This document shows positions 48,457-56,804 of a stretch of DNA of 64,000 bases, in pieces; position 1 is the first letter of the stretch; every line of letters begins with the position of its first letter. The position numbers were made by a program, and so were the translations under genes. This stretch comes from Coprinus comatus. Lineage: Eukaryota > Basidiomycota > Agaricomycetes > Agaricales > Agaricaceae. The notes beneath the pieces were generated by a model that was not told the origin of the DNA, did no database searches, and saw only the letters and a list, made by a program, of their open reading frames with translations. The stretch lies in NCBI GenBank assembly GCA_034638255.1, contig JAWPGT010000012.1:434001-498000 (forward strand), read 5' to 3'.

Positions 48457-48528
48457 GGCCGCCTGGCGAAATGGCATCGCGTCTGACTACGAATCAGGAG
48501 ATTGCAGGTTCGACCCCTGCGGTGGTCA
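48457..48528 (+). tRNA. tRNA-Arg (anticodon ACG)
   Basis: A full cloverleaf is visible. Acceptor stem GGCCGCC pairs with GGTGGTC plus discriminator A. The D arm is GCGA...TCGC. Anticodon stem TCTGA/TCAGG has loop CTACGAA, so the anticodon is ACG. The T arm is GCAGG-TTCGACC-CCTGC. The A box (tggcgaaatgg) and B box (ggttcgacccc) fit pol III consensus. There is no intron. A T6 terminator begins at 48536. Confidence 0.95.
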
Positions 48529-49136: not shown

Positions 49137-52100
49137 ATGGCGAGAACGAAACAAACTGCAAGAAGGTCGAGAAGTGGACCACAGTTGTTATATAAGAGTC
49201 GAAGAAAGAATGAAGAAGCACAACGCGTCAATGTTCCGAATAGTAGAAAAAAGAAAGTGGTTTCATCATTGGTTTTGGATTCTGGTACAAATGCAAATAC
49301 AAGTGCTCATAGTAGCAGTAGTCGGAAGAAGAAAATAGGAACGAGTATGAGTATGAGTATGGTTGTGGATGAAATTCAAGGAACGACGAAGAGAGGAGGT
49401 TCAAATGCAAATTCAAATTCAAAATCGAGATCGAATCCGGTGAAAGATACTTCGATATCTTCACTTACGGATGCTTTGTCGAAACTTGGGACTTCATCGT
49501 CTTCCTCATCATCTTCTACGTCTTCATTTTCCAGTCTTGGTTCGGATTATGCTACTTCACAGTTTTTCAGTAATTCGTCGAGGGCTATGGGTATTATTAA
49601 GGATGTATGTGAGGCTTTTGATGGATTACCTTATGTGAAAGCCGTTGCGGGGTTGGTGAAGCATATCATTGAAATTATCGAGGTACATTTTAAGCTTGTT
49701 TTTTTTTGTGAACGCTTACTCATGGACGAGTTTCTTTTTATTGAATAGGAAGTTCAAGCATATAAAGATCGATGTAGAGCACTTGTTAATAAGGTTGTAC
49801 TCTTCTCACAAGGAATTTTTGAAGGGTTACTCAAGTTATCGAGGGTATTACATTCGTGTCCTGATAATCGAAGTGTTGCAGTCCAAGATCAACTACAAAG
49901 TTTACAAGACGAATTAGTTGATTTCTTTCGGTATGTTCGTTTTTAACTCGTTAGTTGTTTTGAGTAAATTGATTTTTTTCTTCGTTTGTTTAGTGTGCTA
50001 GAGTGCATGTATGCTATTCTGCAGAGTTTGACAACGTCGAAAGTTACTTCAAGATTTCTGCGTTATGTTTCTCGAAGGGAAATGCTTGAATCGATTGAGG
50101 AACAAGACAGGAATTTGGATACGTATATCCAATATTTTAATGTATGTCTTTATTTTTTATTTTTTGTTATGGATTGTTGGGTTTGTTGACGCACCATGTT
50201 GGTAGACAAAATCGAGTATCGCCCTTCGAATGGGTTTGTTTAACCCGTCTTCTGATCTGGTGAGAATAGAAAATATAGCATTCTATGGATGATGTTAACA
50301 AAGAACTTAGGGCCCGCACCAGCCGAGAGTATCGACAAAGATAAAGCAAATGTCCAATTCTACACCGCTCTATGGTCGTGAAAATGAACTGGAAACTCTT
50401 GTGGCACATTTCACGAATTCCAATTCTCAAACTAATCTTGCAATCCTCGGACCAGGAGGAATAGGCAAAACCGCACTCGCACTCTCATTATTCTCTTCTC
50501 AACAAATCATCTCTAAATTCGGTGCAAACCGTTACTTCGCCTCATGTACAGACACTTCTTCTTCATCTCTTGATCTCTTCATTCATGAACTTGCATCTTC
50601 TCTCAATATTCCTAGTACCGATGGACATAACATTTCCGGTGATAAACTCTTTAAAGTCATTCTTTCCTATCTTCAACAATCCACTCATTTACTCATTTTG
50701 GATAATTTGGAATCAATTTGGGATCCTATTGATACGAGGACACAAACTGAATTCTTATTATCGTCATTATCTTCCATTCCAACAGTCAATTTACTCATAA
50801 CAATTCGAGGTTCACAACATCCATCAAGAATATCATGGTCAACACTTTTACCTCCATTAAAACCATTATCATTTCTATCCGCACAACAACTTTTCACAAA
50901 AATTTCACATAAAGAAATTACAAATGATGAATATGCGAATAATTTAATTAAAGCTGTTGATTGTGTTCCTTTGGCTGTTAGTTTACTTGCTCATCTTGCA
51001 AGTGTTTATGGAGTTCGTACAGAAGAACTTTGGGAACGTTGGATTGATGAGAAGACTAAGATGATTAGTGAAAAAGGTGGTCCTGGTATTGGTGGTGGTG
51101 GATTTCAACAATGGGATAAAGAATTGAATTTGGATAGTTCGATTAAGGTTTCATTGGATGGACCTAGAATGAAATATGATAAAGATGCGATGGTGTTGAT
51201 TTGTGTTGTGGTGGTTTTACCGAATGGGATGTCGAAAAGAACTTTGATGAGTTTGATGGGCAAGTCTGGTGGTAGTGGAGAAAAGATGAATTGGAATGGG
51301 AATATGAATGTACGTGTTAGGGGGGGTGGAGTTAATTTGAAAAAAGGGTTGAATACGTTAAGACAATGTGCTTTGGTTTATGATGATGAAAACGATGATG
51401 ATGAGGAAGGCAAGGAAGGATTAAAGTGTTGAGTCCTATAAGACATTATGTTTTGGATCATTATCCATTACCATCTACGTCTACTACATCTCAGATTAGG
51501 AAGAACTTTAGCGATAGGAGTGAAGAGTTTGAGGAGAATGCTGGAGAGATGTATGAGAGGATGAAGGAGTATTTTTTGGAATTGGCTAGTAAGGGTTCTG
51601 AGAGAGTGGCGTTGGTTCATCAAGTTTTGAAATGGGAAATTGGGAATGTGGAGGAAATGGTGGTTAGAGGGTTGAATGAGTCTGTGTTTTTGGAAGAGCA
51701 TGATGAGGATGAGAGAATGGATGACGGTAGTGATGGTGATGATGAAATGAATGGAAGTGGTGTTGGGAATTGGAATTGGAATTGGAGAAATGTGGAAGAT
51801 GTTGTTGGTGGTGCTGTTTTGGGATTAGCGGAATATGTGTATGTTTCGGGTGTTGGAAGTTGTCAAGTACCTTTGGAAAAAGCGATTGAGAGGTTGGATG
51901 AGTTGTTGATTGAGATTAAAGCTAAAAATCGAAATCGAAATCTGAAGACTAAGGAAGAAACGAAAAGTTTAGGAATGAAGTTGAGAAGGTTTTTACTTGG
52001 TAGAACTCTAAACATCAAATCAACATTCGTATCATCTTCAACAACAACAACTCGACAAAGAACTCGAATCGAAGATCTTGAAATTCTTAAAGCTGATTGT

Positions 52101-55089: not shown

Positions 55090-56804
55090 ATGGCTCACAG
55101 CTTCATAGGGTTCGTACTCTCATACCCCACAGCACAACCCCTGCTCATCTCCAAATCATTAGAAAACCAATCTCTCTTATTTCTCATTCAGATGTAAGGT
55201 ATAGAGGTATTCTTGCTGGTATCGACCCAGTAGCCTCTACAATCCAATTATCCAATGGTATGTATCTTCGACTCTTTTCTACAGATTTAACCATGTTCAT
55301 CATCAAATAGTCTATTCTATGGGCACAGAATCTCGTCGGTATGTCTTGATCACAAAACAGAAACACGTTTTTTTTTGTGGCTCATACATTATGTATTAGA
55401 CCTCCAGCCGAATTCATACCCCCAGTACAGGATCCTTATCAGTATATCATTTTCAGAGCTTCAGAAGTGAAAGACCTGGCTGTTGATGAACCTGTTGCTC
55501 AACGAAGTGTTCATGATGATCCTGCTGTTCTTGGAGTGAGTGTTTTTTTCTTCTATCTGAATGAGAAAGATGAAACCAATTTCGGATGTAAACAAATTAC
55601 TTTGTCCAAGAGCGCAAAAACCATGTGGAAATTTCCGTTGCCTTCCTTCTGATCTTGTATAAATCATCATTGTGTCGTGTGCTAACGATTTTTCTCTCAT
55701 TCTAAATAGGCTTCTGCTCCTGTAACTGCACCCGCTGCCGCTCCATACTCTCCTTACCCTGCACCTGCCGAAGCAGTAGCTTCCGTTCCACCTCGACAAC
55801 TCGTTCCACCTCAACAACCACCACCTATTCCTCGTCAACCCCAACAACAAACCAAACCTCAAGCACAACCACCTCATGTTCAACAACCACCACCACAACA
55901 ACAGCCACCACCATCACAATCTCCCCAACCTCAACGTGGCAACACTAATAACAGAAGAGGTAATAATCCCATTCAAAATGCTGCCGCGTCTTTGGAAAGT
56001 GTCGAACGTGCTTTAGGTGATTTACGTGTTTCCAACAATCCTATTCCTAATCCTCAAGTTGCTCTTCCTACTCAAGGTCATCAACAAGGTCAAGGTCAAA
56101 GTAGTCGTGGTGGTAGACGTGGTGCTGCTCCTGGTGGTTCCGGTGGTGGAGGAAGAGGAGGAAATGGTAGAACTGGTGGTGCTGGTACGAATGAAGTTGA
56201 ACAAATAAAAGTTCCAAAGACGGATTTTGATTTCGAGAGTATGAATGCCAAGTTTACCAAGGTTGCTCTTGCCCAACAACAAGCGCAACTAGTTGAACAA
56301 AATGGAAATGATAGTAATGGTGAAAATAAAGAAAATGTGGAAGGTATACCTAATGGTACTACTTCATCAACATCGACATCGACATCTACAATAGGTACAA
56401 CAACAACAACAACAGAAAAACCAGAACCTGCATATAATCCACAAAAATCATTCTTTGATTCACTTTCATCATCTGCTTTAGGTGGTGGTCCTTCCGGTTC
56501 TGGTCCAGGATCAGGAGGTTTTAGAGGTGGTAGAGGTGGTGGTAGAGGTGGTGGTAATGGTAATGGTAATGGTAGTGGTAGAAATAGAAGAGAAGAGGAA
56601 AGAGAGAGGAATGTGGCTACTTTTGGTGAACCAGGTGGTGTTGGACTTATGGGACCTGGTGCTTATGTTGGTGGTTGGGGTGGTTATGGAAGGAGAGGTG
56701 GTAGAGCTAGAAGAGGTGGTGGTGGTGGTAATGGTGTTAATGGACATGGTGGGTATCAGAATCAAGGACAAGGGTATCAACAGGTTCAGGGTCAGGGTCA
56801 GTGA
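55090..56804 (+). CDS. SCD6: Lsm14/Scd6 family mRNP translation repressor
   Basis: Five exons (55090..55109, 55163..55257, 55311..55338, 55400..55535, 55710..56804) give 457 aa. Scd6/Lsm14 binds mRNA, eIF4G and decapping factors in P-bodies. The LSm domain is at residues 1-~90: MAHSFIGKPISLISHSDVRY, RGILAGIDPVASTIQLSNVY, SMGTESRRPPAEFIPP, YIIFRASEVKDLAVDE. A Pro/Gln linker follows, then the order DFDF motif (KTDFDFESMNAKF), FFD box (AYNPQKSFFDSLSS), TFG box (ERNVATFGEPGGVGLMG), with RGG repeats between and after. All family landmarks are present. The first coding exon is only 20 nt and exon 3 only 28 nt. Reading frame is clean throughout. Confidence 0.95.

What the first reader, a model, noticed from the sequence alone, without database searches (positions are those of the whole stretch)
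49137..49178. NLR-like protein begins with the histone H3 tail sequence ARTKQTAR
The first coding exon of an MLKL-like/NB-ARC/TPR gene starts MARTKQTARRSRSG. After Met removal, positions 1-8 are identical to histone H3 (including R2, T3, K4, Q5, T6, R8), S10 is kept and K9 is Arg. Eight identical residues exactly at the N-terminus are very unlikely by chance. It could bind H3K4 readers, writers or erasers (PHD fingers, SET1/COMPASS, LSD1-type enzymes), either as a decoy guarded by the receptor or as a chromatin anchor. Basic NLS-like patches follow directly. H3-tail mimics are known from viral and SNAG-type proteins; I know of none on a fungal NLR.
Basis: partly seen in the sequence, partly recalled or inferred. 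Interest (0 to 1): 0.92.

Follow-up and report, generated by a model that had tools for sequence, protein, structure and literature searches.

The report
Fungal immune receptor wearing histone tail
A mushroom-type fungus, and a distant mushroom relative, carry an immune-receptor-like protein whose very first amino acids copy the tail of histone H3, and the copy looks preserved by selection, which suggests that the receptor docks onto proteins that normally read or modify histones.

Summary
In detail: an ORF with a stop codon directly upstream starts at 49137 with MARTKQTARRSRSG and leads into an NB-ARC/TPR receptor. A homologue from Leucocoprinus leucothites, found by whole-length search, starts MARTKQTARKSGSG, identical to H3 1-10.

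Context changes the picture. Nineteen other orthologues start at the same Met with an older motif, roughly MGR-x5-R-x-S-x-SGAVIFYG, and none has ARTKQTAR. R3, R9, S11 and sometimes T4 therefore predate the H3 match; A2 and K5-A8 are the clade's own.

The two tailed proteins are 48% identical overall but 8/8 at residues 2-9; the best of 209 other pairs is 6/8. Site-wise rates elsewhere give about 5e-6 to 2e-5 for 8/8.

Most likely this is a selected mimic of the H3 N-terminus (K4 side) on a receptor that is the only NB-ARC match found in this genome. Partner and role (guard, bait, anchor) are unshown. Weak points: two tailed sequences only, no binding data, and a window copy with a frame break near 51.40 kb and a shortened C-terminus.

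The parts
49137..49163 (+). Start codon plus H3-identical tail, MARTKQTAR (H3 residues 1-8 after Met removal)
   Evidence: identical at all 8 residues in P0003
49164..49193 (+). Rest of the N-terminal motif, RSRSGPQLLY: S11, S13, G14 and Y19 of the family motif kept, A15, I17, F18 lost
   Evidence: column counts; alignment
49137..49682 (+). Coding exon 1: tail, low-complexity Ser/basic linker, start of the helical (MLKL-like) domain
   Evidence: tblastn of P0003
49749..49930 (+). Coding exon 2 (helical domain)
   Evidence: splice borders located; agreement with orthologues
49994..50141 (+). Coding exon 3 (helical domain)
50206..50259 (+). Coding exon 4
50311..51432 (+). Exon 5, NB-ARC domain with P-loop GPGGIGKT; this frame ends at a stop at 51430-51432
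   Evidence: PF00931, 39.5 bits, cut-off 23.5; only NB-ARC match found in this genome
51405..53396 (+). TPR region, open in another frame from about 51.40 kb; ends at the equivalent of P0003 residue 1200 of 1249
   Evidence: TPR_12, 98.7 bits; tblastn frames and end point

Best explanation
The protein is an orthologue of an Agaricales receptor family (disordered N-terminus, probably MLKL-like helical bundle, NB-ARC, TPR). In the clade of the window species and Leucocoprinus, an older N-terminal motif (MGR-x5-R-x-S-x-SGAVIFYG) was rebuilt into a mimic of the histone H3 N-terminus. Inferred steps: Met is removed as in H3, exposing A1-R2-T3-K4-Q5-T6-A7-R8 on a flexible tether of roughly 110-130 residues; this free end is bound or modified by a protein that recognises the K4 side of the H3 tail (PHD, SET1/COMPASS, LSD1 or haspin type); that docking places the receptor at, or makes it guard, the H3-tail machinery, so that tampering with the tail or its binder lets NB-ARC oligomerise and the helical bundle act on membranes. 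Shown here: the sequence, the start, the orthology, the older motif and the conserved tail. Inferred: binding, nuclear site, guarding, cell death.
For: Exact tail at the start in two species: window and P0003. P0003 was found by whole-length homology, so its tail is an independent test of the window's. Residues 2-9 are 8/8 identical at 48% overall identity, while linker residues 25-141 are 25/89 and the longest identical run in residues 15-141 is 3. The best of the 209 other pairs is 6/8 for residues 2-9 (3 pairs) and 3/5 for residues 4-8 (5 pairs). Expected 8/8 from site identities in the 19 others, taken as independent: 4.7e-6 (171 pairs) or 2.3e-5 (36 pairs at 0.45-0.60 identity). The column that is G in 19/19 others is A in both, H3's first residue. 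The tree puts both in a 7-row clade (100/100), the window on its first branch and P0003 nested, path 1.55 changes per column. Five of the 8 tail codons differ from those of the two intact-tail H3 genes, so it is not a recent copy (sequences). Precedents: PAF15's H3-like N-terminus is recognised by UHRF1 (PMC7060239, passages); Sgo1's N-terminal tail is proposed to mimic the H3pT3-survivin interaction (PMC12420818, passages).
Against: Only two sequences carry the tail, one divergence apart. The other five clade members' records start downstream of this region; if they are counted as lacking it, the tree needs two changes of the label, and 0% of 200 bootstrap trees need only one. All 19 comparable orthologues outside the clade lack it. 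The drop in the SGAVIFYG half (3/7 in this pair) is not unique: 10 of 171 pairs among the other 19 also share 3 or fewer. The window row's amino-acid make-up is flagged as unusual in the tree. No binding, localisation or expression data. K9 is not conserved. The window copy has a frame break and a short C-terminus, so it may be decaying or mis-assembled. The MLKL-like reading is weak: PF22215 appears in 1 of 4 orthologues scanned, at E 0.024 and below cut-off, and in this genome matches another place (contig C9), not this gene; fold matches to MLKL are no better than to unrelated bundles.
Confidence: 0.55

Rival explanations
1. Coincidence on an older motif. The N-terminus does a family-wide job unrelated to histones (short basic start plus SGAVIFYG, perhaps a docking or amyloid-type element), and one lineage drifted to a form that equals the H3 tail and then kept it for reasons unrelated to H3.
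For: R3 in 16/19, R9 in 13/19, S11 in 10/19 and T4 in 5/19 of the other orthologues; Psilocybe rows reach GRTVNTARR and GRMANTARRS, a Crucibulum row GRTKSAPRAS, i.e. 5, 4 and 4 of H3's first 8. About five changes are needed.
Against: A2 and Q6 are absent and K5 (1/19), T7 (3/19) and A8 (3/19) uncommon at these columns elsewhere; the exact 8-mer has probability 10^-7.8 to 10^-8.9 under the family profile; strict retention across a path of 1.55.
Confidence: 0.25
2. Origin by recombination: an ancient gene-conversion or template-switch event pasted the 5' end of an H3 gene (about 11 codons) onto the receptor, using the similar start codons. This concerns how the tail arose and is compatible with the mimic.
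For: All of H3 residues 1-10 appear together in P0003; two H3 genes in this genome have the whole tail in one exon.
Against: The best blastn match over the tail is 19 of 23 bases, E 0.25, little beyond what shared residues impose. Likeness stops after S10. Too old to test with one DNA sequence; P0003's DNA is not held.
Confidence: 0.15
3. Fossil: the window copy is a decaying gene, and its tail has merely not yet mutated.
For: Frame break near 51.40 kb, C-terminus about 49 residues short of P0003, long low-complexity insertions; long terminal branch 0.89.
Against: The frame after the break is open for 663 codons, so the break is recent or an assembly error. P0003 is 1249 aa long with the same tail.
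Confidence: 0.15
4. Splicing or annotation artefact: 49137 is an internal codon and the true start lies upstream.
For: A CTAAC and several AGs precede the ATG.
Against: In-frame TAG directly upstream; start at the same Met in 20 of 21 database rows that keep this end.
Confidence: 0.02

Closest known systems
Basidiomycete MLKL-like (BaMLKL) NLRs, PMC9815663 (passages and section 28 read)
   Same: Agaricomycete NLRs with an MLKL-like helical domain; some TPR types
   Different: The parts read discuss amyloid-like motifs in agaric NLRs and BaMLKL proteins; the word 'histone' occurs 0 times in that text
PAF15 H3-like N-terminus read by UHRF1, PMC7060239 (passages)
   Same: A non-histone protein uses an H3-like N-terminus as ligand for an H3 reader
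   Different: Vertebrate replication-linked factor, not an immune receptor
Shugoshin 1 N-terminal tail and survivin, PMC12420818 (passages)
   Same: Non-histone N-terminus proposed to mimic the H3pT3-survivin interaction
   Different: Mitotic protein
SNAG-domain proteins (GFI1/Snail type) and LSD1 (listing and abstract starts only; the mimicry itself is recalled)
   Same: N-terminal peptide that recruits a histone-tail enzyme
   Different: Different sequence; transcription factors
Plant NLRs with integrated decoys (recalled; listing only)
   Same: Receptor carries a copy of a pathogen target
   Different: Those are folded domains; here it would be an 8-10 residue histone peptide
H3 and CENP-A-like genes of the same genome
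   Same: H3 begins MARTKQTARKS
   Different: No histone fold here; the CENP-A-like gene starts MAQTVQS

Membership tests
Fungal NLR / STAND receptor | NB-ARC or NACHT domain with P-loop | tested here: met
   PF00931 39.5 bits over cut-off 23.5; GPGGIGKT
Fungal NLR / STAND receptor | C-terminal superstructure repeats | tested here: met
   TPR_12 98.7 bits, in a second frame of the window copy; in one protein in P0003
MLKL-like (BaMLKL) executioner | Four-helix MLKL/HeLo-type bundle at the N-terminal side | tested here: inconclusive
MLKL-like executioner | Membrane permeabilisation and cell death on activation | not testable with these tools
   needs expression in cells
H3-tail mimic | H3 sequence at the true N-terminus with Met followed by Ala | tested here: met
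   transcript start not tested
H3-tail mimic | Conservation beyond the surrounding sequence | tested here: met
   two sequences only
H3-tail mimic | Binding to an H3-tail reader, writer or eraser | not testable with these tools
   needs peptide pull-down or structure
Histone H3 / CENP-A | Histone fold domain | tested here: not met
   No Pfam match in exon 1; none of the 16 PF00125 matches in this genome lies on this contig, C12
Amyloid signalling motif (for the older SGAVIFYG half) | Matched motif on a separate cell-death effector in the same genome | tested here: inconclusive
   G-A-[IVM]-I-F-Y-G coding pattern absent from this genome, whose own receptor has lost that half; other fungal genomes not held

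The most novel reading that the evidence does not exclude
A conserved fungal NLR has swapped an ancestral N-terminal motif for a histone H3 tail that serves as an integrated bait or docking peptide. The receptor thereby monitors the enzymes or readers of H3K4, its own or an invader's, and triggers MLKL-type cell death when the tail is cut, modified or displaced.
Probability: 0.28. Interest if true: 0.9.

Novelty: new variant of a known kind. Interest (0 to 1): 0.7.

Why it matters
If the tail is read by H3-tail proteins, it would tie a fungal cell-death-type receptor directly to chromatin machinery and give a concrete case of histone-tail mimicry inside an immune receptor. The work also brings out a short N-terminal motif shared by receptors of 15 mushroom genera (the string GAVIFYG is in no paper of the library), with one clade in an H3-like state, so the job of that N-terminus can be tested by comparing both states.

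Tried and rejected
Histone-gene artefact: rejected; no histone fold here, and the H3 and CENP-A-like genes lie on other contigs. Recent copy of the genome's own H3 5' end: rejected; 5 of 8 tail codons differ from the two intact-tail H3 genes, and blastn against L002, L003 and L009 gave nothing significant (best E 0.02, away from the tail; tail E 0.25). Splicing artefact: judged unlikely. N-myristoylation of the MGR start: dropped, because R directly after G is disfavoured in the usual consensus (recalled) and position 6 is not consistently Ser/Thr. Intron across the frame break: ten GT-AG pairs of the right phase were listed; nine would remove the conserved CALVYDD segment, and the tenth ends before a stop in the second frame, so a frame change (mutation or assembly) is more likely. 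Search with P0003 residues 1-60 (101 candidates, only P0003 at E <= 10) has no power: at that database size the window protein would score E 1.6e4 and a tail-only control E 2.4e3, so it says nothing about other tailed NLRs. Literature searches; held 0 papers, the others were seen as listings, of which three papers were then read in part. Tried without use: PF00931 and PF22215 counts as a measure of the whole NLR repertoire (lower bounds only).

Full report
What is there. Reading window:49137 on the + strand gives MARTKQTARRSRSG. The preceding codon is an in-frame TAG and the stop-to-stop frame is 49137-49748. Four introns with GT/AG borders join this to an NB-ARC exon at 50311-51432; Pfam gives NB-ARC 39.5 bits and TPR_12 98.7 bits. 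The degenerate coding pattern for ARTKQTAR occurs 3 times in the 35.7 Mb genome: here and in two H3 genes, with 0 for the reversed control. Base composition predicts 0.007, or 0.00013 behind an ATG. Two lesions must be told: the frame changes near 51.40 kb, and the C-terminus stops at the equivalent of residue 1200 of 1249 in P0003. The frame after the break is open for 663 codons, so this is a recent change or an assembly error; I cannot tell which.

Relatives. A whole-length search (46 proteins at E <= 0.001 among 7978 scored) gave P0003 of Leucocoprinus leucothites, 1249 aa, starting MARTKQTARKSGSGATLFYSRRK; Agaricaceae by the taxonomy. A search with a five-row alignment gave 355 proteins at E <= 1e-5, 120 listed. 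Of 45 closer relatives (P0002-P0009, P0048-P0084), by eye 21 records keep the N-terminus and 24 start downstream of it; the 24 were dropped. Dropping also P0056, whose annotated start differs, leaves 20 rows plus the window. The more distant listed rows (P0010-P0047, P0085-P0157) were not used for the motif.

An older motif. The 19 rows other than the window and P0003 share a start that can be written MGR-x5-R-x-S-x-SGAVIFYG without gaps: G2 19/19, R3 16/19, R9 13/19, S11 10/19, S13 14/19, G14 14/19, A15 18/19, I17 18/19, F18 16/19, Y19 19/19, G20 18/19. They come from 15 genera (Lyophyllum, Asterophora, Hypsizygus, Sphagnurus, Collybia, Laccaria, Phlegmacium, Hebeloma, Gymnopilus, Psilocybe, Agrocybe, Crucibulum, Infundibulicybe, Hohenbuehelia, Amanita; names, their placement in Agaricales recalled). 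None has ARTKQTAR; the nearest, two Psilocybe rows and one Crucibulum row, match 4 or 5 of the 8 H3 residues. So part of the likeness (R2, R8, S10, often T3 in H3 numbering) belongs to this motif.

What is special to the tailed pair. The window and P0003 are 48% identical overall. Residues 2-9 are 8/8 identical, residues 4-8 5/5, residues 14-20 3/7. In the other 209 pairs of the 21 rows, residues 2-9 reach at most 6/8 (3 pairs) and residues 4-8 at most 3/5 (5 pairs). Among the 171 pairs of the other 19, 124 share at least 5 of 7 at residues 14-20, but 10 share 3 or fewer, so the loss in that half is suggestive and not unique. Column by column, the window lacks A15, I17, F18 and G20, and P0003 lacks I17 and G20. 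Multiplying site identities seen among the 19 gives 4.7e-6 for 8/8 (171 pairs) or 2.3e-5 (36 pairs at 0.45-0.60 identity), treating sites as independent; the longest identical run in window residues 15-141 is 3. A maximum-likelihood tree of 29 rows places the window as first branch of a 7-row clade (100/100) with P0003, Macrolepiota, Leucoagaricus and three metagenome proteins, with a path of 1.55 changes per column between the two tailed rows. The window row's make-up is flagged as unusual there. If the five members whose records start downstream are counted as lacking the tail, the label needs two changes; since their N-termini are unseen, one gain in the clade's ancestor is the simpler reading but is not shown.

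Origin. Five of the 8 tail codons differ from those of the two H3 genes with an intact tail, and the best blastn match over the tail is 19/23 at E 0.25; no recent copy. An old gene conversion and stepwise convergence cannot be told apart. The CENP-A-like gene (MAQTVQS...) is not the source.

Mechanism. Because A1 through R8 and S10 are kept but K9 is not (R in the window, K in P0003), and because likeness ends there, the conserved surface is the free N-terminus and K4 side of H3. That is the part read by PHD, WDR5 and survivin-type readers and used by SET1, LSD1-type and haspin enzymes (recalled). The A at an otherwise invariant G column is H3's first residue. I infer that the tail docks the receptor to one such protein. 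Whether this is a guard, a bait or an anchor is open. H3-like N-termini as ligands of H3 readers are known from PAF15 (PMC7060239, passages) and proposed for Sgo1 (PMC12420818, passages).

Verdict. Observation confirmed; interpretation partly supported and sharpened. The weak points are the number of tailed sequences (two), the lesions in the window copy and the lack of any binding data. The short-motif database search has no power, so the wider distribution of the tail among NLRs is unknown.

Noticed in passing
window 49137-49196 and N-termini of P0007-P0009, P0048-P0052, P0054, P0055, P0057-P0060, P0064-P0066, P0068, P0070: N-terminal motif MGR-x5-R-x-S-x-SGAVIFYG on NB-ARC/TPR receptors of 15 mushroom genera, with Y19 in 19 of 19; the string GAVIFYG is in no paper of the library. 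Function unknown.
   Followed up: partly
window about 51400-51432: Frame break between the NB-ARC and TPR parts in an acidic GA-rich stretch; downstream frame open for 663 codons.
   Followed up: partly
window 53396: C-terminus ends about 49 residues short of the Leucocoprinus protein.
   Followed up: partly
L002 and L003 (G000 contigs C33 and C60): Two H3 loci identical over the first 45 coding bases and differing at one of the 60 bases upstream; on C33 the H3 lies beside a divergent H4 gene.
   Followed up: no
L009 (contig C9): A further H3 gene whose tail appears interrupted by introns: MARTK / QTARKSTGG / KAPRK.
   Followed up: no
L011 (contig C2): CENP-A-like gene starting MAQTVQSRAGPS with an internal TARKSTGG segment.
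   Followed up: no
G000 contig C9:936482-936616: The only PF22215 (MLKL_N) match in the genome at E <= 0.01, 26 bits, below cut-off: another possible MLKL-like gene.
   Followed up: no
whole genome G000: Only one NB-ARC match found in 35.7 Mb, the gene studied here (a lower bound).
   Followed up: no
window 48457-48528 (+): tRNA-Arg (acg) about 600 bases upstream of the receptor.
   Followed up: no
window 55710-56804 (+): FDF-domain protein with Arg/Gly-rich stretches, probably Scd6/Lsm14-like (FDF; the name is recalled).
   Followed up: no
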